Shown piece after piece: positions 164 to 64,000 of a stretch of DNA of 64,000 nucleotides; the stretch's first letter is position 1; the number at the start of each line of letters is the position of its first letter. The stretch comes from Rhea pennata. Taxonomy: Eukaryota > Chordata > Aves > Rheiformes > Rheidae. The stretch lies in NCBI RefSeq assembly GCF_028389875.1, contig NW_026907681.1, positions 2,373,242 through 2,437,241 on the forward strand. Reading direction: 5' to 3'. The notes beneath the pieces were generated by a model. It saw only the letters and a list, made by a program, of their open reading frames with translations. It did no database searches and was not told the origin of the DNA. Both the position numbers and the translations under genes were made by a program.

Positions 164-10517
<10,354 letters not shown>

Positions 10518-12026: not shown

Positions 12027-14469
<2,443 letters not shown>

Positions 14470-23545: not shown

Positions 23546-23547
23546 GG

Positions 23548-23893: not shown

Positions 23894-24228
23894 CCATTCT
23901 TAGCTCTTACATACACGCCATGGAGCACTTCTGGGATCTTCAAAGGCTCTACTACCTATGACTTTGTTCTCCAAATAAGGAGCAATTGGTGACCAAATTG
24001 GCTTTGCTTGGAGCCGGGCGAGAGCGCGGCTGCTGCCGCGTGGGGCAGCGAGAATAACTGGGCAGCGCTCTCTGCGCCTGGGGAGGCTGTGAAACACAGC
24101 GCAGCCGCACGAGGCAGCCGTGCACGCGGCCGTGTGCCGCGCTGGAGCGCGGTGTTAGTGCGGGCGGCCAGGGCAGTGCGGGGGTGCTAGCGTGTCTCTT
24201 CTTTCTCCGTGCCCTCGTCTCGGCGTAG

Positions 24229-26850
24229 GGAGGCAGAGCGGTTTCTGGCGCAGGCGGAACGGGTGCCTGCGGTGCCCGGCCAGAGCAGAGGGACGCCTGG
24301 GGCCGCGCGCTCCTGCGAGTGCAAGGCCATCGTGGAGCTGGTGCTCGTGCCCCTGGCTCACCACCACACGGCAATGGGCAACGATGCCAGAGCCCTCTAC
24401 TACCTGCTGGAGAGCGCGGCTGCCTGCTTGCACGTCTCCGACAACTACCTGGTGAGTTGTCCTGCGTGCCAGAGGCCGCTGCACGTGGAGGCCTCTCGGT
24501 GGCCTTGCCCAGGGCAAGCCCATTTCCCCCCTGCACTAGGACCGGCCTCTGTGGGCCCTTGGGGGCGAAGGGCTGGGGTCGGAGCCGGGGTTTTCCTCCC
24601 GCTTGCGTGTCCCGGGGCAAGAGCCGCGGGGCAGGGGAGCGGGACCTTCGCGCGAGGCGCCCCAGCAGGGAGGCGGTGCGGAGGAGCGCTCGTGCCCGCG
24701 GCGTGCGCTGGGGTGGCATCGGCAGGGGCAGGGGCACGGCCTCCGCGGGGAGCTGTGCAGGCGGGTGGGAGTGCTGGGGCTGGAGGCGGGCTCCGCAGCG
24801 CCGCTCACCCGCTCTCCGTGCGCTTGCTCCAAGGCCTTCACGAGCCTGCGCAAAGCAGAGGCCCTGAGGAGCTCGGCGGCTCAGAAAGCCCCGGTGCCGG
24901 CCTGCTTTGAAGAAGCCACCTTCCTGAGCCTGCAAGGGGAGGTAAAGCGGCAGGGCGGCCGCGAGGGCTCTCGGGGCGGGAGGAGCGGGATGCCGCGGTG
25001 GCGCGGGGCAGCCGGCGGGGGCGGCGGGGGGGACACCTCTGGCACTTTGAGGCCCGGCCGCATTGAGCAGCCCTGCCTGCGACCGCCGCGTCCTCCGGCC
25101 CCAGCCGGTCGAGGCCCTCGGCCTCGCGTCGGGCAGGGGCGGGAAATGTGGTGGGAGCTCAGTCGGAGCCCTCGGGCACCGCCTGAAGAAGCCTTCTCCT
25201 GGGCAGGTGTGCTACAACGTGGGACGCGTGGAGCTGGCCAAGACGACCCTCAGGAAGGCGCTGAGCCTGCTGGGCCGGAAATTCCCGGGCACCTCGGCTG
25301 GCGCCTTCTTTCAGCTCCTGCTGGAGCAGTCGGCGCACGCCTCTCACCAGAAGAGCAGAGGCTCCTGCCCTCCCGCAGAGGCGGGGTAAGGAGCTCAGGG
25401 AGAAGAGAAGGGCAGAAAGAGCCCTTTCCTTGCTGGTGCTGAGCCCCTCGGCCGCCAGCTGCCTAGGCTTAGGGCTAGAGTCAGGTCCTGGCGAGGGCGA
25501 CGCTGCGCAGGGCGCTGGGGGCTGCTGTCGGGGGAGGCGGGCTGTGTCGTCTCGAGGGGGACGGCGTGGGTGAGAGCAGAGGGGTGCACAGGCTGCAGAG
25601 GGAAAGAGAGTGTGCAGGAGGGAGCAGGCGGTGGGCCCGGGGGGAAGCGGAGGCGAGGGGCGGGGAGGAGGGAGCTCAGGGCTCGCAGCTGGGTGCCAGC
25701 CTGCCGCACAGCACCCCTTCTGCTGCCGGTGCCCGGCTTTGCTGGGCCGCCGCGGGCTGTAGTGCCGTCGCGTCCTTGCGAGCAGTCACCTTTCCCCGTG
25801 GTGCTTCTCGGTGCTCCTGCATCCGCCCCTGCAGCCCTGCCCGCCCCAGCCGCCTCGTGGGCCTCGCGCCTCCCCGGCCCTGCCGGACTCGGCCCCGCGC
25901 GGCTCACGGCTGCGGCTCAGCAGTTTCTCTTGCGTGGCAGGACGGAGAGGCTGCCCTGGCTGTTCCAGCAGAGCCGCTGCCTTTCCTTGCTGCGGCAGCT
26001 CTTCAGCCTGGAGAACACTTCCAGCGGCCGGAGGCTCTCGCTCCTCGCAGCGCTCATGAGGGTCAACGCGGCCGAGGAGTCCGAGGACGCGAGTCACGTG
26101 AGTGCCTTCTCCGCACCGCAGCAGCCGCAGCAGGCGGCTGCACGTTCGACACGGCTCCTTTCCCCCGGCCCGGCAAGAGCAGCCGCAGGGTCTGCCCCGG
26201 CAAGGAGAGGCCAAACAGGACGGGGATGTCCCCGTCCCGGGACTTCTCTCTGCCAGCTCCCAGGAGACGGGGCTTGCTGTTCTTCTGGGCTGCTCCTCTC
26301 ATTGGATTTGTGTCGTGACTGTCACCCTTGGGCAGGCTGTGGCTGTGGGAGGCGTGCGAGTGAAAGAGAAGAGCGAAAGTGGCGGTGGGGTTTGTGGCCC
26401 TCTAGGCCCGAGAGTCACCCTGGCGAGATCCAGTCTTGTGCATTCTGCTGTCTGGACCTTTCTAGATCCTCGCGTCCTACCTGGAATATGTGCAGTGCTG
26501 CCAGGAGCTGGGCCGCCAGGAGGAGCGGCTGGAGAGCGGGCGGGCGGGCGGCCGTCCAGCTTAGCTCCGGCGTCGAGCCCTTTGGAGGAGGAGGGGCGTT
26601 AACCGCCGCAGAACTGGCCCAGGCCCTGTCCCGTCTGCACCTCAGCCTGGGAAATCTGCCCCTCTCTGTCGACGTTGGTAGGTGCTGCCCCGGCTCCCTG
26701 GGAGAGGAGATCTCTGCGGAGAGAGCCTCTGCGAGTCGGCTTTATTCACTCATTCATTTATTTCCCTCTGCAGTGCACGGAGCTGGAGAAGCCCGACCTG
26801 GACCGGGAGCTTCCAGGCACGCTCTTCACGGCGCTCTTTCTCCAGATGAG
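24229..26850 (+). pseudogene. ADCY10: Soluble adenylyl cyclase, 3' exon fragment (copy A)
   Basis: Six exons corresponding to the C-terminal part of ADCY10 are present: 24229-24451, 24834-24941, 25207-25385, 25941-26097, 26466-26677 and 26774-26850. The protein segments align with the long C-terminal helical repeat region of human ADCY10, for example LPLAHHHTAMGNDARALYYL and VCYNVGRVELAK. All cyclase and NTPase exons are absent, because the block begins inside an intron at 24001. The exon at 26466 runs into TAG at 26562-26564 after a (GGGC)n run, and homology resumes in another frame (GNLPLSVDVG), so a frameshift is present. It is identical in layout to copy B and cannot encode a functional enzyme. 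Confidence 0.9.
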
Positions 26851-27240
26851 GTAATGCTGCCGCTGGGCACGGTGCGGTGTCGGGGGGCCACCGGAGATCC
26901 TTTGGGCCAGGGTCACGGGAGCCTTTCCCCGGAGACTTGTTGCCAAAAGATGAGTGGGTGAAAAGAAGAGCGATGGGAACTCCCCTGGAGGTTCTCCAGG
27001 AGGAGCACAGAAGGGGGAGAGACGGGTGAGGAGAAGCGGGGTGGGACGCGTGCCAGGGTGCGGAGTTGAATCCCACCGCGCGGAGCTGCTCCCTGGGGCT
27101 CACTGCGTGCCTCCCCAGTGCCCGGAGCGTGCAGGAGCGCTCTCCAGGCTGGAGAAGCAGCTGGCTGGAGAGCCCGGGATCGCCGGGCAGGCGTGCTGCT
27201 CCTCCTGCTGCCGGGACCTCGCAGCGCGTGGAGGGGGCCG

Positions 27241-27408
27241 GGGCCGGGGGGCGGTCCCGCCGCGCACGGCTGCCGCTGATTGGCTGCGGGGGCGGGGCGG
27301 AGCGCGGGGATTGGTCCGGGCGTGGAGGAAGTGACGACTGGGCGGGGCGGGGCCGGCGCCGGGTTCAAAGGGCGGCGGCGGTTGGCGGCGGCGGTTGGCG
27401 GCGCCGCC
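27241..27408 (+). promoter_or_regulatory. NUF2 copy A core promoter: two CCAAT boxes, GC boxes and CHR
   Basis: Inverted CCAAT boxes (ATTGG) lie at 27279-27283 and 27310-27314, exactly 31 bases apart. GC-box-like GGGCGGGGC elements lie between and after them. A CHR-type hexamer TTCAAA (reverse of TTTGAA) is at 27364-27369, 40 bases before the ATG. This NF-Y plus CHR layout is the established signature of G2/M genes controlled by DREAM and B-Myb-MuvB, a class to which NUF2 belongs. There is no TATA box and the region is CpG-island-like. Confidence 0.75.
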
Positions 27409-30400
27409 ATGGAGGTGCTGACGTTCCGGCGCTGCAGCCCCGCCGACATCGCTACCTGCCTCCGCGGCCACGTCCGGGCCGGCTCCGAAGCCCGCAGCCT
27501 GGCCAAGGGCGACCTGTTCCCCGGCCCGAAGGTGCGGCGGGGCGGGGCGGGCGCTGAGGCGACGCGCGGGCTTTGGCCCCCCGCGGCGCGGGCGGGCGGG
27601 GGGGGCCGGTGCCCCGCAGCTGTCAGAGCGCGCGGTGCCGCCGCTCGTGTTGCGGAGCGCGGCGGAGCGGTGCCGCGCGGCTCCCTCGCCTCGGGGCGGT
27701 AGCGGCGGGGCTGCTTTTCCGGGCGGCCCGGGAGCCCTGCGCGGTGTGGGTGACACGCTGGTTTGTGTCTTTGCTTTCGCAGCCTGAAATCTCGCACGTG
27801 ATTTTCATGAGAATCCTGCAGAAGGTGTACGGGATCCGCCCGGAGCATTTCTATGTGGTTCGTGTGCAATGTGGTGGCTCACGTACAGCGGAACGCGTGG
27901 GGCAGATAATAAATGTTGGCTGTAGAGATGAAATGTTGAAGCGTTGCTCTCCTTTGCGTGTCGTGAGGTCAGGAGGACGCCGCCAGGAAGGTACGGTTTT
28001 CCACGTGCTGACAGTGAGGAGGAGCTTGGAAATCCTGCCTGTGCTGCAGAAAGCCCAGAGCGTTGGAGGCACTGTGTAGCGTGGGGATTTGCTGTGTGCG
28101 TGTCCAGGGAAGCGGCTGCTGTGTGTGTGTAGGCAGGGATGCGAGTGCAGTATTGCGGCATAGTCCTTGCAGTAGGTCCTTTGCTAGAGACCTCTTTGAA
28201 GCAGGAGTATGATGTGTGTGCGGACTGTTGCTGTGGCACGGCTGACTGCACCTGAAAATCAAAGAAGATTCTCCCTGTTTTCTGGGAGTTTGGTTCAGGT
28301 CAAGGTGCTTCTCAAAAGAGTGGGGTTTGGGTGTGCTGCATCCGAGTTGCTCTTTTTTCTTAAATAAAAAAATCTTTGTTTTGATGGGTTTGTTTTTTGG
28401 GGCTGGTTTCTTCTAGGGGGTGGGGTGGGGTGAGGGTTCCTCCTCGCTTCCTGCCCTGTCCGGGCCTCTGCCTTTGGCCCCGGTGGGAGGGAGGGTGCCA
28501 GCTCCAAGGGTCTGTGGGCGCCGTGGAGAAGGGCAGTGAACGCTACCTGCGGAGCTCGGCCCACTGCAGCTGTGCGTTTGCCGCGCAGCGTCCGAGGGCG
28601 GCTGTGGCCGGTGGCCTCGGCAAACGGATGCCGTGCTGAGGTGAGGCCAAGCGCGTCTTGTGCCTCCGCCACGCGGGAAGTTATTCCTGGAAGCCCGTGG
28701 GAAATGGTAGTCTCGGGGCATTTGTGGATAGCACGTGCTCGTGGCAGCTCAGCTGTTCGTGCGCTGTCACGTTGATTGTCGTCGTCCTGTTACGGCGTGA
28801 CCAGCCCAGAGCGGTGCTCGAGGCAGTCTGCTGGCAGAAGCGAGGGCAGCCTTCGGCGTCCGTTGAGCAGAGCTGTGAGTCAGCTCGCGGGCCAAAACGT
28901 AGCAGAGGAAGAGCTGGGACTCGTGGTGGTGTGGGGGGAGCCGAGCAGCTCCTCTTGCCAAGGGGTTCGTGTTTGTGCGACTCGGGCCTGAGCTCCGCCG
29001 CGAGAGGCGGCCTGCGTGCGGGGCGCCTGACGTGGCCACAGCGCGCTGTCTCCTTAGGGTCGGCTGCGTTTCCTTGCCCTGAGAGGGAGAGGTTTTTAAG
29101 CTGAAATGTGCAGTCTTAGGGAGCAGTTCTGGCTTCTGGGTGGCACTGTCCGGGGAGCATTTTTCCAACGGCCTTGTTTTGCAGCCTCTGGACAAATCCT
29201 AGGACGTGTCTCTCCAGGGTGAGTTTGTTACTTGGCAGTGACTATGTGGAGGTTTTCTTTCCTCCCTCCCTCCCTCTGTCCTCCTCCCTCCCTCCCTCTG
29301 TCCTCCTCCCTCTGTCCTCCTCCCTCCCTCCCTTTTTGTGTGTGTTTCTGGAGGGGAGGGTGTTTCATGCTTGGAGTTTACTAGAGAGAAGATGCATGTC
29401 CCGCAGATGGAGCCTTAGCAGCTTGTGTTCCCCAGGGGTGCAGAGACCATCAGGTGTGTCTTCAGCCTGTCTGAGTGATGTTCTGTTGTGGAGAAAACCT
29501 GCCTGTTTTTCTGGAAGTCTGCTGTGCCTGCGTATTCACTCTGCTCTCTTTCCTCTTTAGATGCCCGTCAACATTGACATCGTGTATCCCCAAATATTTG
29601 AAGGCTTTCTCCCTGTTTGTAACTTGTTTATTCACATGTAAGTACACAAGTTTGTATCCGTTTGGTTGTTACTTCTTCCAAGGCTTCAGTTCAGAGGGAA
29701 TGGGAATGGGGGTGGGGGTGGGGGCGGGTTGTTTTTTATTTTTTTGAGCACCTGTGAGCTGGTGGTGGCTGCAGCGCTCTCTGTGCTCTCTGGTTTGGAG
29801 CAAAATGAAATTTGCAGGCGAGCAAGAGGCAGCAAGGTTGTAATAGAAAAGAAAAACCTTGGCAGCTGTCTTTTGTCTAAATCGATGCGTTACCTTTACT
29901 GTGAGGACTAGGAGGCTGCGTTAGTGACTTGATTTAGAGGGTGGGGGAGTGAAAGGGCGGGTTGGAGCGCCTGGGGGTACCGCGAATGGCCAGAAGTTCA
30001 TCATCATACCCAAAAAGGGGTTTGAAGCCCTTGTTAGGTGAACTTGCCCCCCCAAATTCGAGATACCTTTGCTGCAGGGATGGGAGCGTTAAACACTAAT
30101 CTGTGCGGGCGATCGTACTGTGTTAGTCTCCTGAGAGGACTTGTTGCTGTTGCGTGCTTACTGCACCTGGGCTCTGGGGTAAGAGGAGAAAATCTCTTTT
30201 GAGTGAGCGTCTATAGCACAAAAACTGTAGTGGTCGCTGCAGATAGATCTATGTTTTGCTTCCTTGCAGGGAGCGCTTTCTCCCGGTGTGCCGTGTTAAT
30301 GACTTTGAGATTGCTGATGTTCTAAGTCCAAGTAAGCAAGTGCTTGTGATGCTGTCTGTCCCGTGTGGGAGTGTAGGGGGATTGGGGTGGTGGCACTTGA

Positions 30401-32291
30401 CAGGCAGGCTGCTTTCCTGCCCGCTTGGCACTCGACTGCTAGTAGTTTGTCCATCAAGCTGTGGCACTCTTGAAATGGTGTGGGAATACGTGGCCGTGGA
30501 AAGTAGCCTGAACTCTGTGGAGTTCTCTCTGGAGTCCTTAGGCAAATACCTCCGCAGGGAGCGGTTAGATGGTGAAAGCTGCTCTTTCGTCTCCGCGGTT
30601 CCCAGCTGTGGCGATTCTGCTGCGCCGCACAGCTTAGGACAGGCTGTTGTGAAGAACGCTTTCACTTCTGGGTCTGTCTTAGCTTGTGAGAGTGTTGCCC
30701 GTTACTGATGTTCCTGCTGGGGGGGCAGAGGAAGACAAGCCCTGTTTCTGCGATCCCTTGCCTCCTCTGTGAATTATGCTTGGCCCACCTTTTCCTAAGT
30801 GATTGCAATATGCATGGAGACCAAAACAGTGATGACTTGCAATTCTAATTTCAGAAGCAAAGAGGACAGCTCGCTTCTTGAGTGGCATTCTCAACTTTAT
30901 ACATTTCCGAGAATCACGCCGTGGAGTCTACTTGGATTTACAGGTGAACTATGTAAGATTCGGGGCTGTGTTACTCCTGATGCTTGCTAAAACATAAGGA
31001 ATGTTAACCTCAGTTTGAGAACATAGAGGTTGTACTTCTTAATTGCATGTTTTAGAAACACGCTGGGGTTTTCCTGTGGTTTTAGAGATGGTGTGTTTCA
31101 AGTGAAATACGTGATTAGTAGAGCTCAGAGAGAACCCAAAATGTAAACCGTGTTCCCCTAGAATAAAAACATCTCCACGTAATTAACTTGCAGAAATGAG
31201 CTGTGGAGAAACTGCAACAGCTGGAGACAGCAAATCAAGAGGCAGCAGTGAAGCTGGAGAAGCTGAAGTGAGTATAAGGAGTAGGAGCTGAGTTGCACTA
31301 ACCTTCTTGGCTAGCTCTCCTGTTCCCAGTGCATGTGTGGGGTGTGCAACTGGGAACTTACTAGTTGAGCTTTGTGGTTTGATAGAGCAGACTGAGAACA
31401 ACAGGCTTCTCTGCACCTGGTGTAGATAGTGGACAGCCCAACCGGTGCTCAGAAGTTTGGCCCCTCTACCTCCCTTCTGCTTGTCTGTGACAGCTGAGGT
31501 GGTAGTTCCTCTTGGACTAGACGAAAAGTACTTGCTTTGAGTAACGGGTGTGGACTTTTGTGTGTGTGGGACTAGCTTGCTGTGAAGGGCAGACGGTGTA
31601 GCGGCAGTAAGTTGAGACAGTAGTTAGCTTTGTTTCCTGGCAGTGAAACATATCTTGCTTTCCTAGGAGAGTTTTCTTTCAAACTGTCCACCTTCTCTCC
31701 CTTACCCCATCACACGTTCTCAGCATGTGCACCTCCATGCTTTGTAGCTTGGTTCTCAAAGCGAAGTAATATTTTTGAGCTTTCCTCCAAGCCTGTTTAG
31801 CTTAGTCTGGGCAGACTCAGCTTCTCCACTGGCACTTGACTTTGCTGTTTAGCCTCTTTGGGAAGCAAGCCCGGAAGCATAAAGCAGTTTCTGTTGGGTT
31901 GTGCCCTGTTAGAGGAGGGGCTTGTCTGGTGAGAGGCCAGAAGAGCTGTTGTGAGCAAAGAATAAGACTTTGGGAGTGCCTGGTTGCTGTGAGAGGAAAA
32001 CTGTATTTTGTAGCTCAGAGACTGTGGTGGATCTTTAATTTGAAACCATCATTTTGATCGTCTAAGCTCTTAAGGATGAATTCTTTCTGGAGTGGTTGTT
32101 CTAGCCTCACCAATCTATCGATTTCACTAATAATGCTGAAACTGTCAATATCTCAGTGTGTGGTTGTGTTATTTATTTATTTACGTTTGCTTAGCACTGT
32201 TCCTGTAGAAGAGCAAGCAGAGTTCAGGCAGCTGTCTGATGACATTCAGGAATTGCAGCAACTGCTAAACCACGACTATCGTCGGAAAACG
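27409..32291 (+). pseudogene. NUF2: NDC80 complex subunit NUF2, 5' exons 1-7 (copy A), premature stop
   Basis: NUF2 pairs with NDC80 in the outer-kinetochore complex that binds microtubules; its N-terminus is a calponin-homology domain followed by a coiled coil. Exons: 27409-27531, 27783-27857, 29561-29637, 30270-30331, 30855-30952, 31194-31267 and 32195-32291. The ATG sits in an ideal Kozak context (GCCGCCATGG). Landmarks matching human NUF2 are MPVNIDIVYPQIFEGFLP, ERFLPVCRVNDFEIADVLSP, KRTARFLSGILNFIHFRE and [20 protein letters not shown]. Exon 6 opens AAA TGA (stop 31197-31199), where Ser is expected, giving a 146-residue product covering roughly the CH domain. Later coiled-coil exons are not found before the block ends. 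Differences from copy B include Ile for Val in exon 2 and Val for Ala near the end of exon 5. Confidence 0.92.
29262..29335. repeat. (CCCT)n / CTGTCCTC short tandem repeat, copy A
   Basis: Pyrimidine-rich CCTCCCTCC and CTCTGTCCTC units in a NUF2 intron. The array differs in length and arrangement from the equivalent in copy B (about 58619-58700), which explains part of the offset change. Confidence 0.85.
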
Positions 32292-32299
32292 GTATGATC

Positions 32300-33988
32300 T
32301 CTTTACCCCTTTCTCTGGAATGCTGCTGTAGCTTCTGATCACAGGTGTTCCTTATTTTTGTGTTGGTTTTGTTTGTTTTGTCCCCTTCCCCTACTTTTGT
32401 GAAGGATAAAGAGGACTTTTCTGATTTAAAACAAAAAAGGTATTACAACACCACATTCTTTTTAATCCCTCCCCTTACCTCTTTGTTTACCCATAAGTGA
32501 TGTGAAACATGCTTGGAATCAGAGCTAGGGTCTTTTCTTTTGAAATACATTGTTGTGGTGAATGGAGAGGCACCTCTTTTCTTGTTGAAAGTAATATGTA
32601 TGTTTTGCCGTGAAATTTTTGATTTGTCTTGCGATTGAATTTGAAGGGTTTACTCAGAACTGAGGGTGAACTATGTTGGGAAATAGACTGAGGCCTAAGA
32701 AGGGTTACCCAAGGAAAGACTCTTAAAAAAAAAAAAAAAAAAGAGAAAAAAGAAAAAAAGCCAAGGTGATGTTGGTAGGGAAGAGTGCTACTTTCCAGCA
32801 AGGGCAGCTTTCTTCTAGGTTTCACAGGTAACCTTTTCTGTCACTTCAGAGAAATGAAAATCTGGTTAGTATTTTTTTTGGAGGTGCTACTGTAAGCCGT
32901 CTGTCTGCTTTTAATATTAACCATGTTTCACCTTCTTATTACTGGAGACCTGGTGTATTAATGTAGGCCTTCTCAAAGTAAAAACATGACCTCTGGCAAA
33001 GAAGATTGGGTGTGTGTAACAAACCACAAGGGCTGATGAGAGCAGAGGAAGTAAAATGGCACCAGTATTTGCAGGTTGGGATGGAGCTGGGATGGCAAGT
33101 GAGACATGCAAGCATGCCGAAAAGGCTTTGGCGTGGTAGTACAGAGAAGGGTGCTGATAGCACTGCGTAGTACAGAGGTAGCTGTTTTGGCTCTTGGGAG
33201 CTATGGGCTGTGTTCTTGTTTTCTGCGCTGCCTGCCCACTCTGATGGAGAGAACCTTCTGAAGTTAGTGCCATCTGTCACCCCTATTCCAAGTCACCTGC
33301 GGCTGCCTGCCTCCTCGATGCTCCCAGTGGCTTTTCAACAATGTTTTCCTTCCCTATATTTTAAGTTTCTACAGACTGCTATTTTATCTGCTAGTTGTGG
33401 CATTCCAAAGAAACTATCAGTGAGATTTAAATAGCAGTGAGGTGTACGACCTTAACTGTGGCTTGCATCTGGGAGATTAGCTTAGTATAAGGTAGCTCTT
33501 CCCCTGAAAGAGTCAGATATTGCAGAGAGGACCCGAAAATTGGTGAGTGTACCTTGATATAGGCTATAGTTTAAATTCCAGTTCAGCTAATTGATCATCT
33601 TTCTGCCTTTAAGATCAGGTTAGTCTTGGAGCTCGGTAACGTGATAGTTCAGGAGATGATTTTTAGCTTTTTAAAAACTGTTTCAGCTTTGCTTTTCCCA
33701 CAGAAACTTTACTGCAACTAACCGGTGATTTTTTTTTTTTTTTTTTTTTGCCTTTACAGACTTCTCTGGTATACGCGTGAACAAACACACGTCTGTCGCC
33801 CGTTAGACTGCGCCTCTGCGTCCACTCTTGCCTATTTGGGGCCTATGGATTAGAGGCAAGATCACTTCTTGGTAATTTCACTTTTGATTCACAGTCTGCA
33901 GACAGGTCACACTGTAATGGTTATAAGATAGCCTGTTTAGCATGCTTAATGGAATTTTATCATGCTTTTCCCTTTTATTTCACCAGAT
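32300..33988. other. NUF2 intron sequence, copy A, no further exon recognised
   Basis: AT-richer intronic sequence with an A run at about 32725-32743 and a T run at 33729-33749. No coiled-coil exon of NUF2 is recognisable here on the + strand. Confidence 0.5.
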
Positions 33989-34085
33989 CCCGCTGGTGTC
34001 GGACGAAGAAGCCAGCGTCTGGCACGTGGAGTTGCTGTGTGTTTTCATGCAAGCAGATACCTCCCTAGGCAAATGGCAGTGTTAG
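33988..34085 (+). other. Unidentified exon-like segment, copy A
   Basis: A pyrimidine tract and CACCAG acceptor precede a frame continuing in phase from NUF2 exon 7. It reads IPLVSDEEASVWHVELL and ends at TAG near 34083-34085. It does not resemble the expected NUF2 continuation (a QKK-rich coiled coil) and no good donor is seen before the stop. The same segment is conserved in copy B (about 63361-63458). It could be a degenerate or alternative terminal exon, or chance. Confidence 0.25.
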
Positions 34086-34627
34086 GCAAATGACAGGATT
34101 TTATTTGCACCTCCCTTTATTCTGGTCTGTATATACACTTTGGTATCAAAACACAAGTCATTTCCAAGAATACTTTGATAATGTGTAGGCAATACGTTTT
34201 ATGTTAAAAGATTCCAGCTTCAGCGATATATGATACAAACCTTTAAATTCAGGAGGATTTTCTAGGTCTGTAAGGGGACAAACATGCAAAATGTTCCTAA
34301 ACCAGTGGCGGTGTAGTGGGGCCCCACTGCAGGAGGACAGATGGCATCTTTTCACCGTTGCTGGTGTAAGAAAGGAAGAAAACAGGACCCGGTGGGATCC
34401 CAGGTTCCTGAAAGCCCTAAATGAGCAAAACGCTTCAGCCCGTGCTAATCCAGCGTGATTGAGGCCCGCTCCGAGCAGCCCTTAGGGTCGGGACCAAACC
34501 TACCTGCTGATGCCAGTTGTGGCGCATGAAGGATCTGGGTGCTCGTCTGCGCAGGGCAGGTGTTGGCATTGCCCCTCGCTGGCCTGCAAGGGGCTCGTGG
34601 GGCGCTCAGGAGAATCCAAGAAGTACC

Positions 34628-41735: not shown

Positions 41736-41744
41736 GTGCGGGTC

Positions 41745-41825: not shown

Positions 41826-41945
41826 GCCCCGCTGGCGGCAGAGGGTCACCCGTGCCTCACAAAGGCTGGGGCTCAGTGCGCGAGTCTGCGCGGTGCTGGC
41901 TTGTCCTCCTCCCTGCTGGGCACGGGCGTCTTCTGCCGGGGCACC

Positions 41946-53900: not shown

Positions 53901-55921
53901 CGGCCTCTGTGGGCCCTTGGGGGTGAAGGGCTGGGGTCGGAGCCGGGGTTTTCTTCCTGCTTGCCTGTCCCGGGGCAAGAGCCGCAGGGCAGGGGAGCGG
54001 GACCTTCGTGCGAGGCGCCCCAGCAGGGAGGCAGTGCAGAGGAGCGCTCGTGCCCGCGGCGTGCGCTGGGGTGGCATCGGCAGGGGCAGGGGCACGGCCT
54101 CTGCGGGGAGCTGTGCAGGCGGGTGGGAGTGCTGGGGCTGGAGGCGGGCTCCGCAGCGCCGCTCACCCGCTCTCCGTGCGCTTGCTCCAAGGCCTTCACG
54201 AGCCTGCGCAAAGCAGAGGCCCTGAGGAGCTCGGCGGCTCAGAAAGCCTCGGTGCCGGCCTGCTTTGAAGAAGCCACCTTCCTGAGCCTGCAAGGGGAGG
54301 TAAAGCGACAGGGCGGCCGCGAGGGCTCTCGGGGCGGGAGGAGCGGGATGCCGCAGTGGCGCGGGGCAGCCGGCGGGGGCGGCGGGGGGGACACCTCTGG
54401 CACTTTGAGGCCCGGCTGCAGTGAGCAGCCCTGCCTGCGACCGCCGCGTCCTCCGGCCCCAGCCGGTCGAGGCCCTCAGCCTCGCGTGGGGAAGGGGCGG
54501 GAAATGTGGTGGGAGCTCAGTCGGAGCCCTCGGGCACCGCCTGAAGAAGCCTTCTCCTGGGCAGGTGTGCTACAACGTGGGACGCGTGGAGCTGGCCAAG
54601 ACGACCCTCAGGAAGGCGCTGAGCCTGCTGGGCCGGAAATTCCCGGGCACCTCGGCTGGCGCCTTCTTTCAGCTCCTGCTGGAGCAGTCGGCGCACGCCT
54701 CTCACCAGAAGAGCAGAGGCTCCTGCCCTCCCGCAGAGGCGGGGTAAGGAGCTCAGGGGGAAGAGAAGGGCAGAAAGAGCCCTTTCCTTGCTGGTGCTGA
54801 GCCCCTCGGCCGCCAGCTGCCTAGGCTTAGGGCTAGAGTCAGGTCCTGGCGAGGGCGACGCTGCGCAGGGCGCTGGGGGCTGCTGTCGGGGGAGGCGGGC
54901 TGTGTCGTCTCGAGGGGGACGGCGCGGGTGAGAGCAGAGGGGTGCACAGGCTGCAGAGGGAAAGGGAGTGTGCAGGAGGGAACAGGCGGTGGGCCCGGGG
55001 GGAAGCGGAGGCGAGGGGCGAGGAGAAGGGAGCTCAGGGCTTGCAGCTGGGTGCCAGCCTGCCGCACAGCACCCCTTCTGCTGCCGGTGCCCGGCTTTGC
55101 TGTGCGCCGCGGGCTGTAGTGCCGTCGCGTCCTTGCGAGCAGTCACCTTTCCCCGTGGTGCTTCTCGGTGCTCCTGCATCCGCCCCTGCAGCCCTGCCCG
55201 CCCCAGCCGCCTTGTGGGCCCCGCGCCTCCCCGGCCCTGCCGGACTCGGCCCCGCGCGGCTCACGGCTGCGGCTCAGCAGTTTCTCTTGCGTGGCAGGAC
55301 GGAGAGGCTGCCCTGGCTGTTCCAGCAGAGCCGCTGCCTTTCCTTGCTGCGGCAGCTCTTCAGCCTGGAGAACACTTCCAGCGGCCGGAGGCTCTCGCTC
55401 CTCGCAGCGCTCATGAGGGTCAACGCGGCCGAGGAGTCCGAGGACGCGAGTCACGTGAGTGCCTTCTCCGCACTGCAGCAGCCGCAGCAGGCGGCTGCAC
55501 GTCCGACACGGCTCCTTTCCCCCGGCCCGGCAAGAGCAGCCGCAGGGTCTGCCCCGGCAAGGAGAGGCCAAACAGGACGGGGACGTCCCCGTCCCGGGAC
55601 TTCTCTCTGCGAGCTCCCAGGAGACGGGGCTTGCTGTTCTTCTGGGCTGCTCCTCTCATTGGATTTGTGTCGTGACTGTCACCCTTGGGCAGGCTGTGGC
55701 TGTGGGAGGCGTGCGAGTGAAAGAGAAGAGCGAAAGTGGCGGTGGGGTTTGTGGCCCTCTAGGCCCGAGAGTCACCCTGGCGAGATCCAGTCTTGTGCAT
55801 TCTGCTGTCTGGACCTTTCTAGATCCTCGCGTCCTACCTGGAATATGTGCAGTGCTGCCAGGAGCTGGGCCGCCAGGAGGAGCGGCTGGAGAGCGGGCGG
55901 GCGGGCGGCCGTCCAGCTTAG
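41946..55921 (+). CDS. ADCY10: Adenylate cyclase type 10 (soluble adenylyl cyclase)-like, 26 exons, truncated by frameshift
   Basis: Soluble adenylyl cyclase makes cAMP in response to bicarbonate and calcium and is central to sperm activation in mammals. Exons: 41946-42123, 42744-42849, 42976-43014, 43547-43690, 44144-44352, 44631-44727, 45055-45143, 45436-45627, 45864-45985, 46434-46510, 46827-47016, 47312-47364, 47759-47912, 48249-48441, 49004-49090, 49482-49765, 50315-50451, 50980-51104, 51598-51852, 52045-52398, 52927-52978, 53587-53809, 54192-54299, 54565-54743, 55298-55454 and 55823-55921. They sum to 3903 bases: 1300 codons plus TAG. Cyclase C1 keeps both metal aspartates (FADVSGFT, FAGDAV) and the bicarbonate lysine (DVLKF). 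C2 is complete, and a P-loop (GAIGSGKS) and FFIDNAQ Walker B follow. The bicarbonate arginine (human R176) is Trp at 44233-44235. The human protein is about 1610 residues; the end is lost. Possibly a young pseudogene. Confidence 0.88.
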
Positions 55922-56207
55922 CTCCGGCGTCGAGCCCTTTGGAGGAGGAGGGGCGTTAACTGCCGCAGAACTGGCCCAGGCCCTGTCCCGTCTGCACCTC
56001 AGCCTGGGAAATCTGCCCCTCTCTGTCGACGTCGGTAGGTGCTGCCCCGGCTCCCTGGGAGAGGAGATCTCTGCGGAGAGAGCCTCTGCGAGTCGGCTTT
56101 ATTCACTCATTCATTTATTTCCCTCTGCAGTGCACGGAGCTGGAGAAGCCCGACCTGGACCGGGAGCTTCCAGGCACGCTCTTCACGGCGCTCTTTCTCC
56201 AGATGAG
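55823..56207 (+). pseudogene. ADCY10: ADCY10 frameshifted exon 26 and last recognisable exon (copy B)
   Basis: The exon 55823-56034 starts in frame (ILASYLEYVQCC). After the GGGC repeat at about 55893-55908 it reaches TAG 55919-55921, while homology to human ADCY10 (GGGALTAAELAQALSRLHL, then GNLPLSVDVG) continues in another frame. A net indel in the tetranucleotide run is the simplest explanation. A further exon-like segment, 56131-56207, has good splice sites and weak similarity to the next human region (TELEKPDLDRELPG). The last 200-300 residues of ADCY10 are absent; the NUF2 promoter follows within about 400 bases. Confidence 0.75.
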
Positions 56208-56597
56208 GTAATGCTGCCGCTGGGCACGGTGCGGTGTCGGGGGGCCACCGGAGATCCTTTGGGCCAGGGTCACGGGAGCCTTTCCCCGGAGACTTGTTGC
56301 CAAAAGATGAGTGGGTGAAAAGAAGAGCGATGGGAACTCCCCTGGAGGTTCTCCAGGAGGAGCACAGAAGGGGGAGAGACGGGTGAGGAGAAGCGGGGTG
56401 GGACGCGTGCCAGGGTGCGGAGTTGAATCCCACCGCGCGGAGCTGCTCCCTGGGGCTCACTGCGTGCCTCCCCAGTGCCCGGAGCGTGCAGGAGCGCTCT
56501 CCAGGCTGGAGAAGCAGCTGGCTGGAGAGCCCGGGATCGCCGGGCAGGCGTGCTGCTCCTCCTGCTGCCGGGACCTCGCAGCGCGTGGAGGGGGCCG

Positions 56598-56765
56598 GGG
56601 CCGGGGGGCGGTCCCGCCGCGCACGGCTGCCGCTGATTGGCTGCGGGGGCGGGGCGGAGCGCGGGGATTGGTCCGGGCGTGGAGGAAGTGACGACTGGGC
56701 GGGGCGGGGCCGGCGCCGGGTTCAAAGGGCGGCGGCGGTTGGCGGCGGCGGTTGGCGGCGCCGCC
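56598..56765 (+). promoter_or_regulatory. NUF2 copy B core promoter: two CCAAT boxes, GC boxes and CHR
   Basis: Base-for-base equivalent of the copy A promoter: ATTGG at 56636-56640 and 56667-56671 (31-base spacing), GC boxes, and TTCAAA at 56721-56726. No difference in these elements is visible between the copies. Confidence 0.75.
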
Positions 56766-59700
56766 ATGGAGGTGCTGACGTTCCGGCGCTGCAGCCCCGC
56801 CGACATCGCTACCTGCCTCCGCGGCCACGTCCGGGCCGGCTCCGAAGCCCGCAGCCTGGCCAAGGGCGACCTGTTCCCCGGCCCGAAGGTGCGGCGGGGC
56901 GGGGCGGGCGCTGAGGCGACGCGCGGGCTTTGGCCCCCCGCGGCGCGGGCGGGCGGGGGGGGCCGGTGCCCCGCAGCTGTCAGAGCGCGCGGTGCCGCCG
57001 CTCGTGTTGCGGAGCGCGGCGGAGCGGTGCCGCGCGGCTCCCTCGCCTCGGGGCGGTAGCGGCGGGGCTGCTTTTCCGGGCGGCCCGGGAGCCCTGCGCG
57101 GTGCGGGTGACACGCTGGTTTGTGTCTTTGCTTTCGCAGCCTGAAGTCTCGCACGTGATTTTCATGAGAATCCTGCAGAAGGTGTACGGGATCCGCCCGG
57201 AGCATTTCTATGTGGTTCGTGTGCAATGTGGTGGCTCACGTACAGCGGAACGCGTGGGGCAGATAATAAATGTTGGCTGTAGAGATGAAATGTTGAAGCG
57301 TTGCTCTCCTTTGCGTGTCGTGAGGTCAGGAGGACGCCGCCAGGAAGGTACGGTTTTCCACGTGCTGACAGTGAGGAGGAGCTTGGAAATCCTGCCTGTG
57401 CTGCAGAAAGCCCAGAGCGTTGGAGGCACTGTGTAGCATGGGGATTTGCTGTGTGCGTGTCCAGGGAAGCGGCTGCTGTGTGTGTGTAGGCAGGGATGCG
57501 AGTGCAGTATTGCGGCATAGTCCTTGCAGTAGGTCCTTTGCTAGAGACCTCTTTGAAGCAGGAGTATGATGTGTGTGCGGACTGTTGCTGTGGCACGGCT
57601 GACTGCACCTGAAAATCAAAGAAGATTCTCCCTGTTTTCTGGGAGTTTGGTTCAGGTCAAGGCGCTTCTCAAAAGAGTGGGGTTTGGGTGTGCTGCATCC
57701 GAGTTGCTCTTTTTTCTTAAATAAAAAAAAATCTTTGTTTTGATGGGTTTGTTTTTTGGGGCTGGTTTCTTCTAGGGGGTGGGGTGGGGTGAGGGTTCCT
57801 CCTCGCTTCCTGCCCTGTCCGGGCCTCTGCCTTTGGCCCCGGTGGGAGGGAGGGTGCCAGCTCCAAGGGTCTGTGGGCGCCGTGGAGAAGGGCAGTGAAC
57901 GCTGCCTGCGGAGCTCGGCCCACTGCAGCCGTGCGTTTGCCGCGCAGCGTCCGAGGGCGGCTGTGGCCGGTGGCCTCGGCAAACGGATGCCGTGCTGAGG
58001 TGAGGCCAAGCGCGTCTTGTGCCTCCGCCACGCGGGAAGTTATTCCTGGAAGCCCGTGGGAAATGGTAGTCTCGGGGCGTTTGTGGATAGCACGTGCTCG
58101 TGGCAGCTCAGCTGTTCGTGTGCTGTCACGTTGATTGTCGTCGTCCTGTTACGGCGTGACCAGCCCAGAGCGGTGCTCGAGGCAGTCTGCTGGCAGAAGC
58201 GAGGGCAGCCTTCGGCGTCCGTTGAGCAGAGCTGTGAGTCAGCTCGCGGGCCAAAACGTAGCAGAGGAAGAGCTGGGACTCGTGGTGGTGTGGGGGGAGC
58301 CGAGCAGCTCCTCTTGCCAAGGGGTTCGTGTTTGTGCGACTCGGGCCTGAGCTCCGCCGCGAGAGGCGGCCTGCGTGCGGGGCGCCTGACGTGGCCACAG
58401 CGCGCTGTCTCCTTAGGGTCGGCTGCGTTTCCTTGCCCTGAGAGGGAGAGGTTTTTAAGCTGAAATGTGCAGTCTTAGGGAGCAGTTCTGGCTTCTGGGT
58501 GGCACTGTCCGGGGAGCATTTTTCCAACGGCCTTGTTTTGCAGCCTCTGGACAAATCCTAGGACGTGTCTCTCCAGGGTGAGTTTGTTACTTGGCAGTGA
58601 CTATGTGGAGGTTTTCTTTCCTCCCTCCCTCCCTCTGTCCTCCTCCCTCCCTCCCTCTGTCCTCCTCCCTCCCTCCCTCTGTCCTCCTCCCTCCCTCCCT
58701 TTTTGTGTGTGTTTCTGGAGGGGAGGGTGTTTCATGCTTGGAGTTTACTAGAGAGAAGATGCATGTCCCGCAGATGGAGCCTTAGCAGCTTGTGTTCCCC
58801 AGGGGTGCAGAGACCATCAGGTGTGTCTTCAGCCTGTCTGAGTGATGTTCTGTTGTGGAGAAAACCTGCCTGTTTTTCTGGAAGTCTGCTGTGCCTGCGT
58901 ATTCACTCTGCTCTCTTTCCTCTTTAGATGCCCGTCAACATTGACATCGTGTATCCCCAAATATTTGAAGGCTTTCTCCCTGTTTGTAACTTGTTTATTC
59001 ACATGTAAGTACACAAGTTTGTATCCGTTTGGTTGTTACTTCTTCCAAGGCTTCAGTTCAGAGGGAATGGGGGGGGGGGATGAGGGCGGGTTCTTTTTTA
59101 TTTTTTTTTTTTTTTTTTTTTGAGCACCTGTGAGCTGGTGGTGGCTGCAGCGCTCTCTGTGCTCTCTGGTTTGGAGCAAAATGAAATTTGCAGGCGAGCA
59201 AGAGGCAGCAAGGTTGTAATAGAAAAGAAAAACCTTGGCAGCTGTCTTTTGTCTAAATCGATGCGTTACCTTTACTGTGAGGACTAGGAGGCTGCGTTAG
59301 TGACTTGATTTAGAGGGTGGGGGAGTGAAAGGGCGGGTTGGAGCGCCTGGGGGTACCGCGAATGGCCAGAAGTTCATCATCATACCCAAAAAGGGGTTTG
59401 AAGCCCTTGTTAGGTGAACTTGCCCCCCCAAATTCGAGATACCTTTGCTGCAGGGATGGGAGCGTTAAACACTAATCTGTGCGGGCGATCGTACTGTGTT
59501 AGTCTCCTGAGAGGACTTGTTGCTGTTGCGTGCTTACTGCACCTGGGCTCTGGGGTAAGAGGAGAAAATCTCTTTTGAGTGAGCGTCTATAGCACAAAAA
59601 CTGTAATGGTCGCTGCAGATAGATCTGTTTTGCTTCCTTGCAGGGAGCGCTTTCTCCCGGTGTGCCGTGTTAATGACTTTGAGATTGCTGATGTTCTAAG

Positions 59701-61665
59701 TCCAAGTAAGCAAGTGCTTGTGATGCTGTCTGTCCCGTGTGGGAGTGTAGGGGGATTGGGGTGGTGGCACTTGACAGGCAGGCTGCTTTCCTGCCCGCTT
59801 GGCACTCGACTGCTAGTAGTTTGTCCATCAAGCTGTGGCACTCTTGAAATGGTGTGGGAATACGTGGCCGTGGAAAGTAGCCTGAACTCTGTGGAGTTCT
59901 CTCTGGAGTCCTTAGGCAAATACCTCCGCAGGGAGCGGTTAGATGGTGAAAGCTGCTCTTCCGTCTCCACGGTTCCCAGCTGTGGCGATTCTGCTGCGCC
60001 GCACAGCTTAGGACAGGCTGTTGTGAAGAACGCTTTCACTTCTGGGTCTGTCTTAGCTTGTGAGAGTGTTGCCCGTTACTGATGTTCCTGCTGGGGGGGC
60101 AGAGGAAGACAAGCCCTGTTTCTGCGATCCCTTGCCTCCTCTGTGAATTATGCTTGGCCCACCTTTTCCTAAGTGATTGCAATATGCATGGAGACCAAAA
60201 CAGTGGTGACTTGCAATTCTAATTTCAGAAGCAAAGAGGACAGCTCGCTTCTTGAGTGGCATTCTCAACTTTATACATTTCCGAGAATCACGCCGTGGAG
60301 TCTACTTGGATTTACAGGCGAACTATGTAAGATTCGGGGCTGTGTTACTCCTGATGCTTGCTAAAACATAAGGAATGTTAACCTCAGTTTGAGAACATAG
60401 AGGTTGTACTTCTTAATTGCATGTTTTAGAAACACGCTGGGGTTTTCCTGTGGGTTTAGAGATGGTGTGTTTCAAGTGAAATACGTGATTAGTAGAGCTC
60501 AGAGAGAACCCAAAATGTAAACGGTGTTCCCCTAGAATAAAAACATCTCCACGTAATTAACTTGCAGAAATGAGCTGTGGAGAAACTGCAACAGCTGGAG
60601 ACAGCAAATCAAGAGGCAGCAGTGAAGCTGGAGAAGCTGAAGTGAGTATAAGGAGTAGGAGCTGAGTTGCACTAACCTTCTTGGCTAGCTCTCCTGTTCC
60701 CAGTGCATGTGTGGGGTGTGCAACTGGGAACTTACTAGTTGAGCTTTGTGGTTTGATAGAGCAGACTGAGAACAACAGGCTTCTCTGCACCTGGTGTAGA
60801 TAGTGGACAGCCCAACCGGTGCTCAGAAGTTTGGCCCCTCTACCTCCCTTCTGCTTGTCTGTGACAGCTGAGGTGGTAGTTCCTCTTGGACTAGACGAAA
60901 AGTACTTGCTTTGAGTAACGGGTGTGGACTTTTGTGTGTGTGGGACTAGCTTGCTGTGAAGGGCAGACGGTGTAGCGGCAGTAAGCTGAGACAGTAGTTA
61001 GCTTTGTTTCCTGGCAGTGAAACATATCTTGCTTTCCTAGGAGAGTTTTCTTTCAAACTGTCCACCTTCTCTCCCTTACCCCATCACACGTTCTCAGCAT
61101 GTGCACCTCCATGCTTTGTAGCTTGGTTCTCAAAGCGAAGTAATATTTTTGAGCTTTCCTCCAAGCCTGTTTAGCTTAGTCTGGGCAGACTCAGCTTCTC
61201 CACTGGCACTTGACTTTGCTGTTTAGCCTCTTTGGGAAGCAAGCCCGGAAGCATAAAGCAGTTTCTGTTGGGTTGTGCCCTGTTAGAGGAGGGGCTTGTC
61301 TGGTGAGAGGCCAGAAGAGCTGTTGTGAGCAAAGAATAAGACTTTGGGAGTGCCTGGTTGCTGTGAGAGGAAAACTGTATTTTGTAGCTCAGAGACTGTG
61401 GTGGATCTTTAATTTGAAACCATCATTTTGATCGTCTAAGCTCTTAAGGATGAATTCTTTCTGGAGTGGTTGTTCTAGCCTCACCAATCTATCGATTTCA
61501 CTAATAATGCTGAAACTGTCAATATCTCAGTGTGTGGTTGTGTTATTTATTTATTTACGTTTGCTTAGCACTGTTCCTGTAGAAGAGCAAGCAGAGTTCA
61601 GGCAGCTGTCTGATGACATTCAGGAATTGCAGCAACTGCTAAACCACGACTATCGTCGGAAAACG
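56766..61665 (+). pseudogene. NUF2: NDC80 complex subunit NUF2, 5' exons 1-7 (copy B), premature stop
   Basis: Exons: 56766-56888, 57140-57214, 58928-59004, 59644-59705, 60229-60326, 60568-60641 and 61569-61665, with the same structure and phase as copy A. Exon 6 again begins AAA TGA (stop 60571-60573) in place of the expected Ser codon, so translation would end after 146 residues, about the end of the calponin-homology domain. The downstream coiled-coil exons needed for NDC80 pairing would lie beyond the window. The exon 5/6 junction keeps normal AG and GT, and skipping the 74-base exon 6 would shift the frame. Gene identity is certain. Non-functional status is likely unless the stop is an assembly error or polymorphism. 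Confidence 0.92.
58619..58700. repeat. (CCCT)n / CTGTCCTC short tandem repeat, copy B
   Basis: Counterpart of 29262-29335 with extra units. Confidence 0.85.
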
Positions 61666-61669
61666 GTAT

Positions 61670-62102
61670 GATCTCTTTACCCCTTTCTCTGGAATGCTGC
61701 TGTAGCTTCTGATCACAGGTGTTCCTTATTTTTGTGTTGGTTTTGTTTGTTTTGTCCCCTTCCCCTACTTTTGTGAAGGATAAAGAGGACTTTTCTGATT
61801 TAAAACAAAAAAGGTATTACAACACCACATTCTTTTTAATCCCTCCCCTTACCTCTTTGTTTACCCATAAGTGATGTGAAACATGCTTGGAATCAGAGCT
61901 AGGGTCTTTTCTTTTGAAATACATTGTTGTGGTGAATGGAGAGGCACCTCTTTTCTTGTTGAAAGTAATATGTATGTTTTGCCGTGAAATTTTTGATTTG
62001 TCTTGCGATTGAATTTGAAGGGTTTACTCAGAACTGAGGGTGAACTATGTTGGGAAATAGACTGAGGCCTAAGAAGGGTTACCCAAGGAAAGACTCTTAA
62101 AG

Positions 62103-62134
<32 letters not shown>

Positions 62135-63360
62135 GAAAAAAAGCCAAGGTGGTGTTGGTAGGGAAGAGTGCTACTTTCCAGCAAGGGCAGCTTTCTTCTA
62201 GGTCTCGCAGGTAACCTTTTCTGTCACTTCAGAGAAATGAAAATCTGGTTAGTATTTTTTTTGGAGGTGCTACTGTAAGCCGTCTGTCTGCTTTTAATGT
62301 TAACCATGTTTCACCTTCTTATTACTGGAGACCTGGTGTATTAATGTAGGCCTTCTCAAAGTAAAAACATGACCTCTGGCAAAGAAGATTGGGTGTGTGT
62401 AACAAACCACAAGGGCTGATGAGAGCAGAGGAAGTAAAATGGCACCAGTATTTGCAGGTTGGGATGGAGCTGGGATGGCAAGTGAGACATGCAAGCATGC
62501 CGAAAAGGCTTTGGCGTGGTAGTACAGAGAAGGGTGCTGATAGCACTGCGTAGTACAGAGGTAGCTGTTTTGGCTCTTGGGAGCTATGGGCTGTGTTCTT
62601 GTTTTCTGCGCTGCCTGCCCACTCTGATGGAGAGAACCTTCCGAAGTTAGTGCCATCTGTCACCCCTATTCCAAGTCACCTGCGGCTGCCTGCCTCCTCG
62701 ATGCTCCCAGTGGCTTTTCAACAATGTTTTCCTTCCCTATATTTTAAGTTTCTACAGACTGCTATTTTATCTGCTAGTTGTGGCATTCCAAAGAAACTAT
62801 CAGTGAGATTTAAATAGCAGTGAGGTGTACGACCTTAACTGTGGCTTGCATCTGGGAGATTAGCTTAGTATAAGGTAGCTCTTCCCCTGAAAGAGTCAGA
62901 TATTGCAGAGAGGACCCGAAAATTGGTGAGTGTACCTTGATATAGGCTATAGTTTAAATTCCAGTTCAGCTAATTGATCATCTTTCTGCCTTTAAGATCA
63001 GGTTAGTCTTGGAGCTCGGTAACGTGATAGTTCAGGAGATGATTTTTAGCTTTTTAAAAACTGTTTCAGCTTTGCTTTTCCCACAGAAACTTTACTGCAA
63101 CTAACTGGTGATTTTTTTTTTAGCCTTTATACACTTCTCTGGTATACGCGTGAACAAACATATGTCTGTCGTCCGTTAGACTGCGCTTCTGCGTCCACTC
63201 TTGCCTATTTGGGGCCTATGGATTAGAGGCAAGATCACTTCTTGGTAATTTCACTTTTGATTCACAGTCTGCAGACAGGTCACACTGTAATGGTTATAAG
63301 ATAGCCTGTTTAGCATGCTTAATGGAATTTTATCATGCTTTTCCCTTTTATTTCACCAGA
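61670..63360. other. NUF2 intron sequence, copy B
   Basis: AT-richer intronic sequence matching 32300-33988. No NUF2 exon is recognised. It contains an A run at 62103-62125; the T run that is long in copy A is short here (about 63113-63121). Confidence 0.5.
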
Positions 63361-63458
63361 TCCCGCTGGTGTCGGACGAAGAAGCCAGCGTCTGGCACGT
63401 GGAGTTGCTGTGTGTTTTCATGCAAGCAGATACCTCCCTAGGCAAATGGCAATGTTAG
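63361..63458 (+). other. Unidentified exon-like segment, copy B
   Basis: Same CACCAG acceptor and IPLVSDEEASVWHVELL reading as the copy A segment at 33988. Its preservation is expected from the recent duplication and is not independent evidence for coding. Confidence 0.25.
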
Positions 63459-64000
63459 GCAAATGACAGGATCTTATTTGCACCTCCCTTTATTCTGGTC
63501 TGTATATACACTTTGGTATCAAAACACAAGTCATTTCCAAGAATACTTTGATAATGTGTAGGCAATATATTTTATGTTAAAAGATTCCAGCTTCAGCAAT
63601 ATATGATACAAACCTTTAAATTCAGGAGGACTTTCTAGGTCTGTAAGGGGACAAATGTGCAAAATGTTCCTAAACCAGTGGCGGTGTAGTGGGGTCCCAC
63701 TGCAGGAGGACAGATGGCATCTTTTCACCGTTGCTGGTGTAAGAAAGGAAGAAAACAGGACCCGGTGGGATCCCAGGTTCCTGAAAGCCCTAAATGAGCA
63801 AAACGCTTCAGCCCGTGCTAATCCAGCATGATTGAGGCCCGCTCCGAGCAGTCCTTAGGGTCGGGACCAAACCTACCTGCTGATGCCAGTTGTGGCGCGT
63901 GAAGGATCTGGGTGCTCGTCTGCGCAGGGCAGGTGTTGGCATTGCCCCTCGCTGGCCTGCAAGGGGCTCGTGGGGCGCTCAGGAGAATCCGAGAAGTACC

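What the first reader, a model, noticed from the sequence alone, without database searches (positions are those of the whole stretch)
24001..64000. Direct duplication of at least 10.6 kb carrying ADCY10-3'/NUF2-5' twice, starts 29,359 bp apart
24001-34627 and 53360-64000 align throughout with only scattered substitutions and simple-repeat indels. Copy B is continuous with the rest of ADCY10. Copy A begins abruptly inside an ADCY10 intron next to unrelated DNA. This implies a recent segmental duplication, or an uncollapsed haplotype or assembly artefact.
Basis: seen in the sequence. Interest (0 to 1): 0.75.

Follow-up and report, generated by a model that had tools for sequence, protein, structure and literature searches.

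The report
Rhea-like ADCY10-NUF2 segment, duplicated in tandem
In DNA whose closest named relative is the bird Rhea pennata, a stretch of at least 10.6 kb with the end of the ADCY10 gene and the start of the NUF2 gene occurs twice, 29.4 kb apart; this is likely a real member of a gene segment that has multiplied in rheas, though an assembly error would look much the same and is not excluded.

Summary
The duplication is in the sequence: 24000-34627 matches 53359-64000 in direct orientation (86 substitutions in 10,609 aligned bases, 0.81%; 9 indel events). Copy B reaches the window's end, so the right end of copy A is unseen; an LRRC52 remnant probably bounds it at about 35.6 kb. Copy B is continuous with ADCY10: the 53359 boundary lies inside one ADCY10 intron. 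Copy A starts in that intron, beside a decayed POLE gene (6 in-frame stops, a large internal gap, last exon not found) that is CpG-poor (observed/expected 0.23 against 0.67), with a sharp step at 24000. The nearest proteins are Rhea pennata 'ADCY10-like' models on contigs of two lengths (97% in matched exon pieces), with another lineage on a third. One R. pennata model (P0237) covers copy A's exons from its first exon into NUF2 exon 2, and an emu model has NUF2 exons 1-2 upstream of ADCY10, the order seen here. I favour a real head-to-tail duplication whose first unit was truncated and fused to the POLE pseudogene. An uncollapsed haplotype remains the main rival: divergence is allele-like, CpG loss is not biased to copy A, and exons look constrained. 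No reads, and not the window's own assembly, could be examined.

The parts
24000..34627 (+). Copy A of the duplicated segment (visible part): ADCY10 3' exons and NUF2 exons for aa 1-203
53359..64000 (+). Copy B of the duplicated segment, continuous with ADCY10 on its left, cut by the window end on its right
23999..24000 (.). Left junction of copy A: DNA downstream of the POLE pseudogene exons joined to an ADCY10 intron; no shared bases at the join; GC 0.48 to 0.70 and CpG observed/expected 0.14 to 0.98 between the adjoining 250-base bins
34628..35622 (.). Zone that would hold the right end of copy A if the LRRC52 remnant is not itself part of the NUF2 intron; weak CpG-density change-point near 34720
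   Evidence: inference
164..20287 (+). POLE pseudogene with introns: in-frame stops at 3362, 7102, 12085, 12214, 13051, 14467; a gap of 265-384 codons (by reference) between 14502 and 14679; last coding exon not found in the window
35623..35862 (-). LRRC52 remnant, 3' exon (human aa 211-290, 46% identical)
   Evidence: human sequence recalled
39155..39460 (-). LRRC52 remnant, 5' exon (human aa 1-100, 51% identical); aa 101-210 gave no credible match in the window
   Evidence: (Pfam LRRNT, below its curated cut-off)
41946..52979 (+). ADCY10 5' and middle exons (single copy in the window), matched exons without internal stops
52980..53587 (+). ADCY10 intron that contains the copy B start (53359)
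   Evidence: with R. pennata P0001; next exon start, about 53588, read from the sequence
24230..27235 (+). ADCY10 3' exons in copy A
53588..56592 (+). ADCY10 3' exons in copy B
27409..32294 (+). NUF2 exons for aa 1-203 in copy A
56766..61668 (+). NUF2 exons for aa 1-203 in copy B

Best explanation
A segment of at least 10.6 kb (ADCY10 3' part plus NUF2 5' part) lies twice in direct orientation, 29,359 bp apart, and this is likely a true head-to-tail duplication of a unit LRRC52-ADCY10-NUF2(5') in a bird that is probably a rhea, belonging to a likely ADCY10-NUF2 duplicon family. Inferred mechanism: (1) a tandem duplication with a period of 29,359 bp made two units, its new join being NUF2 intron to LRRC52 downstream DNA, somewhere in 34,628-35,622; (2) a second break removed LRRC52 and the ADCY10 5' part of the first unit and fused the rest, at 24000, to DNA behind the last remaining exon of a POLE pseudogene. 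Copy A is then a 5'-truncated ADCY10/NUF2 fragment, and the intact gene is the ADCY10 copy that ends in copy B. Local gene conversion would explain the 0.39% core between flanks of 1.5-1.9%. Shown: both copies, the gene content, the continuity of ADCY10 across 53359, the POLE pseudogene, and the presence of closely similar ADCY10-like models in R. pennata. Inferred: that both junctions exist in the animal, the order of events, and conversion.
For: Rhea pennata models P0001 (contig 38,578,059 bp) and P0003 (contig 15,144,788 bp) are 98% identical to each other over 785 residues and group with the window at 100/100, so genes of this kind sit at more than one place in a rhea assembly. P0237, a 344-aa R. 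pennata model on a contig of the same length as P0003's, begins inside the first exon right of the 24000 junction and runs through the ADCY10 3' exons into NUF2 exons 1-2, with no earlier ADCY10 exon. Emu model P0005 starts with NUF2 exon 1 (73% to tinamou NUF2), then NUF2 exon 2 read in another frame (E 4e-9), then ADCY10 from the window's second ADCY10 exon on: a NUF2 5' piece upstream of ADCY10, as copy A stands to the main gene. At 2 of 2 ADCY10 sites where A and B differ in protein and Rhea models can be read, B agrees with P0001; A agrees with emu at one and with P0237 at the other. Mostly transitions separate the copies (74:12), unlike sequencing error. The window holds no N, so two separate gapless misjoins would be needed for an artefact.
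Against: A-B divergence (0.81%, patchy) is what two alleles could show. Copy A shows no excess CpG loss although it borders CpG-poor pseudogenic DNA: 26 transition differences have the CpG only in A, 16 only in B (p 0.16). Exons differ less than expected from the neighbouring noncoding rate, 8 of 1,723 bases against 17.4 (Poisson 0.010), as between functional alleles; the deficit is all in 24.0-26.5 kb (4 against 13.6), none in 26.5-33.5 kb (4 against 3.9). P0237 differs more from A (311 of 325 residues alike) and from B (273 of 282) than they do from each other (3 differences in 365), and at the NUF2 site 27789 it agrees with B. The 24000 join has no shared bases. P0237 and P0005 are computed gene models: a frameshift upstream could also explain where P0237 starts, and the emu order alone does not prove a tandem array.
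Confidence: 0.55

Rival explanations
1. False duplication in the assembly: copy A is likely the other haplotype of the ADCY10-NUF2 locus (or a stretch from another closely similar rhea copy), placed by error between a POLE-pseudogene contig and the LRRC52-ADCY10 contig.
For: Allele-like, patchy divergence; no biased CpG loss in A and constrained exons; step in GC and CpG exactly at 24000; copy A starts inside an intron and no NUF2 exon beyond aa 203 follows it. Abstract of PMC9516828: 4 to 16% of sequence falsely duplicated in earlier platypus, zebra finch and hummingbird assemblies, mainly divergent haplotypes.
Against: No N in the window, so two gapless misjoins about 10.6-11.6 kb apart would be needed; similar gene models exist in R. 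pennata, and the NUF2-ADCY10 order in emu; B sides with P0001 and A does not at 2 of 2 ADCY10 sites.
Confidence: 0.28
2. Real, but inserted rather than tandem: a 10.6-11.6 kb duplicon would have been copied next to LRRC52 at the moment (by template switching) or at the place where the POLE pseudogene was joined to this locus.
For: Copy A lies between POLE-pseudogene DNA and LRRC52; related models lie on several R. pennata contigs; the 24000 join has no shared bases.
Against: The NUF2-then-ADCY10 order in emu suggests a head-to-tail arrangement. No insertion hallmark such as a target-site duplication was looked for at the right end, which is unseen.
Confidence: 0.17

Closest known systems
Segmental duplications of animal genomes (usual definition, recalled: two or more copies, at least 1 kb, at least 90% identical)
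   Same: Length, identity, a start inside an intron, mosaic composition with a pseudogene of another locus
   Different: Not yet shown to exist in the animal; right end not seen
False heterotype (haplotype) duplications described in PMC9516828 (outline and abstract seen)
   Same: Haplotype-like divergence, abrupt start within an intron
   Different: No gap in the window; similar gene models exist in another named assembly
ADCY10-like models of Rhea pennata (P0001, P0003, P0237)
   Same: 97% of residues alike in matched exon pieces (P0001 847 of 872, P0003 761 of 781; pieces under 88% dropped, exon-edge mismatches included); P0237 has the same ADCY10 3'-NUF2 5' content as copy A
   Different: Residue differences at several sites, so the window is neither of these loci as annotated in that assembly; P0237 has valine in place of the NUF2 start methionine
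Longer ADCY10 models of Rhea pennata (P0004, P0006, P0008) and Apteryx mantelli (P0002)
   Same: Same gene family and exon order
   Different: A separate lineage (100/100); P0004, the longest, runs about 220 residues beyond the last part matched in the window

Membership tests
Segmental duplication | At least 1 kb and at least 90% identity, not a high-copy repeat | tested here: met
   10.6 kb, 98.7% with gaps counted, and no other self-match in the window at E up to 1e-10; copy number in the genome not testable
Segmental duplication | Both copies exist in the animal's genome | tested here: inconclusive
   No reads or own assembly reachable; indirect support from R. pennata and emu models
Tandem duplication | Direct, head-to-tail order | tested here: met
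   Same strand; LRRC52 remnant and ADCY10 5' exons lie between the copies
Tandem duplication | One unit length from breakpoint to breakpoint | not testable with these tools
   Copy B is cut by the window end; the first unit lacks its 5' part
False haplotype duplication | Divergence at heterozygosity level and no excess decay of either copy | tested here: inconclusive
   0.81%; CpG only in A 26, only in B 16, p 0.16; exonic deficit 8 against 17.4
False haplotype duplication | Half read depth on each copy | not testable with these tools
   No reads available
Processed (retro) copy | Introns missing | tested here: not met
   Both copies keep introns
ADCY10 (soluble adenylyl cyclase) | Cyclase and following regions in exon order, open frames | tested here: met
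   Exons within human aa 16-1251 in order; stops only where an alignment ran into an intron; some human stretches unmatched (e.g. 870-916, 982-1056), most of them matched with P0001; the last 192 residues of emu P0005 not found

The most novel reading that the evidence does not exclude
Rheas carry a spreading ADCY10-NUF2 duplicon: a 3'-truncated soluble adenylyl cyclase gene joined to the start of a kinetochore gene, copied to several chromosomes, kept alike by gene conversion, and giving ADCY10-NUF2 read-through products like the R. pennata model P0237, in a bird group that still has ADCY10 while some other birds have truncated it or keep only a pseudogene.
Probability: 0.3. Interest if true: 0.6.

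Novelty: new member of a known kind. Interest (0 to 1): 0.38.

Why it matters
If real, it is one member of a recent amplification of the sperm cyclase gene ADCY10 onto two or more rhea contigs, beside extra ADCY10-like models in ostrich and in the tinamou Eudromia. PMC6660944 (passages read) reports that among the birds it examined only two palaeognaths keep CatSper genes and that sAC is full, truncated or a pseudogene in various birds, so copy number in palaeognaths bears on how their sperm signalling evolved. If it is an artefact, it would inflate gene-family counts in this family.

Tried and rejected
Rejected: an intact POLE gene truncated by the junction (my first reading, which would have argued for an artefact): POLE here is a pseudogene with 6 in-frame stops and a large internal gap, so its truncation says nothing about viability. 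Rejected: insertion of copy A into a POLE intron, because the last POLE exon is not found right of copy A or anywhere in the window (human tail, recalled: best whole-window match E 0.31; sparrow P0248 and platypus P0240: no match beyond 20305 at E 1e-3). A search for that exon restricted to 20280-24000 failed with a usage error and was not rerun; the whole-window search and the frame listing cover the stretch. Rejected: processed copies (introns kept). Rejected: duplication created by sequencing error, because differences are mostly transitions. Germline-restricted or B chromosome: considered, one paper search (3 listed, none on this by title), no evidence for or against. No Rfam family at gathering threshold. 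Copy A's right end by CpG density: a weak change-point near 34720, not relied on. P0073 matched 36748-37035 at 43%; not explained. An earlier exon count (4 differences in 1,161 coding bases, with an expectation of 10.4 that I worked out by hand) left out parts of exons; one search replaces it (8 in 1,723 against 17.4). A note reads the LRR part of turtle model P0089 as synteny with LRRC52; its LRR repeats look like another LRR family, and I do not use that.

Papers: searches found 0; 47 (10 listed); 3; 1; 3,172 (10 listed, two of three terms required); 2; 1 papers; no listed title reports an ADCY10-NUF2 duplication in palaeognaths. I saw only the outline and abstract of PMC9516828 and 11 passages of PMC6660944; other papers only as listings.
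Full report
What was checked. BLAST of the window against itself (E up to 1e-10) gives exactly one repeat besides the diagonal: 24000-34627 with 53359-64000, same strand, 98.7% over 10,661 columns. A global alignment has 10,609 aligned base pairs, 86 substitutions (0.81%), 74 transitions and 12 transversions, 46 of 86 touching a CpG, and 9 indel events, 6 of the 9 in base runs or short repeats. The window has no N. The copy B match runs to the last base of the window, so the duplication is at least 10.6 kb and its right end is not visible.

Gene content. The human sequences used here were recalled, not fetched. tblastn places ADCY10 exons within human aa 16-981 at 42.0-52.3 kb, then within aa 1057-1251 both at 24.3-26.1 kb (copy A) and 53.7-55.5 kb (copy B), and NUF2 aa 1-203 at 27.4-32.3 kb and 56.8-61.7 kb; no credible NUF2 match beyond aa 203 was found. 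NUF2 and POLE were also found by sequence match to solved structures. With the fetched emu model P0005, ADCY10 exons reach 27235 in copy A and 56592 in copy B, and its last 192 residues are not found in either copy at E 1e-3. On the minus strand, LRRC52 has its 3' exon at 35623-35862 and its 5' exon at 39155-39460, with aa 101-210 not found. LRRC52 between the copies means that copy A most likely ends before 35623; this is inference.

Continuity. The R. pennata model P0001 has an exon at 52926-52979 in the window, followed by the exon that starts at about 53588. Position 53359 is therefore inside one ADCY10 intron and copy B is native to the gene. Copy A starts in the same intron, about 230 bases before its first exon.

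The left flank. Positions 164-20287 hold POLE exons in order, with 6 in-frame stops in matched exons (3362, 7102, 12085, 12214, 13051, 14467). Between 14502 and 14679, 176 bases stand where references have 265 (pigeon P0263), 332 (sparrow P0248), 383-384 (platypus P0240, frog P0243) or 381 codons (human chain). The last exon is not found. It is a pseudogene with introns. CpG observed/expected is 0.23 over 1-23999 and 0.67 in copy A, with a step exactly at 24000. The two flanks share no bases at the join. That POLE lies on another chromosome than the other genes in humans is recalled, not tested.

Whose DNA. An ADCY10 search scored 7,995 candidates and listed 120 of 1,138 relatives; the best was R. 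pennata. Five of the 120 are R. pennata: P0001 (contig 38,578,059 bp), P0003 (15,144,788 bp), and P0004, P0006, P0008 (4,293,332 bp). In a 23-row tree the window, P0001 and P0003 form one set (100/100), apart from the 4.29-Mb copies, which group with Apteryx mantelli (100/100). In exon pieces of at least 88% identity the window agrees with P0001 at 847 of 872 residues and with P0003 at 761 of 781, exon-edge mismatches included. The window is thus likely from the genus Rhea, but is not identical to either locus. Ostrich models lie on contigs of two lengths, and two Eudromia models, 83% alike, on one; models on one contig may be isoforms of one gene.

Independent traces of the structure. The NUF2 search listed 119 proteins, one from R. 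pennata: P0237, 344 aa, on a contig of the same length as P0003's. It starts inside copy A's first exon and runs through the ADCY10 3' exons into NUF2 exons 1-2, which is what an annotation pipeline could make of a copy-A-like fragment; a frameshift upstream would give the same, so this is suggestive. The emu model P0005 begins with NUF2 exon 1, then NUF2 exon 2 in another frame, then ADCY10 from the window's second exon on: a NUF2 5' piece upstream of ADCY10. A turtle model (Emys, P0089) joins ADCY10 to NUF2 in the other order, ADCY10 first.

Alleles or paralogues. For paralogues: at the two ADCY10 protein sites where A and B differ and Rhea models can be read, B agrees with P0001; A agrees with emu at one and with P0237 at the other. 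Against: at the NUF2 site 27789 P0237 agrees with B, and P0237 is further from A and B than they are from each other; CpG losses are not biased to copy A (26 and 16, p 0.16); 1,723 exon bases show 8 differences where 17.4 are expected from the noncoding rate of the same regions (Poisson 0.010), the deficit lying wholly in 24.0-26.5 kb. Divergence is clustered (0 of 10,000 permutations as high), which fits gene conversion between paralogues as well as shared ancestry of alleles.

Verdict. I favour a real head-to-tail duplication within an ADCY10-NUF2 duplicon family, with the first unit truncated and fused to a POLE pseudogene (0.55), over a false haplotype duplication (0.28) and a duplicative insertion (0.17). 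The result that would settle it, reads across 24000 and across 34.6-35.7 kb, was out of reach; the genome search for the window's own assembly did not complete.

Noticed in passing
164-20287: POLE pseudogene with introns, 6 in-frame stops, an internal gap of 265-384 codons by reference and no last exon found; CpG observed/expected 0.23 over 1-23999.
   Followed up: yes
35623-39460, minus strand: LRRC52 remnant in which human aa 101-210 were not found.
   Followed up: partly
27235-27409 and 56592-56766: ADCY10 in both copies lacks the C-terminal part of the emu model, and the last matched exon ends only about 170 bases before the NUF2 start codon, so the two genes almost touch.
   Followed up: partly
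P0009, P0015, P0025, P0065, P0074 (Struthio); P0010, P0064 (Eudromia): Ostrich and the tinamou Eudromia also have several ADCY10-like models that group by species, suggesting separate amplifications or homogenisation; some may be isoforms.
   Followed up: partly
23500-23870: DNA just left of the junction resembles an avian CR1 element (recognised from memory, no call).
   Followed up: no
36748-37035: First 82 residues of the Apteryx owenii model P0073 match here at 43%, between the LRRC52 exons; not explained.
   Followed up: no
41742-41838: 39-40 bp tandem repeat just upstream of the ADCY10 start.
   Followed up: no
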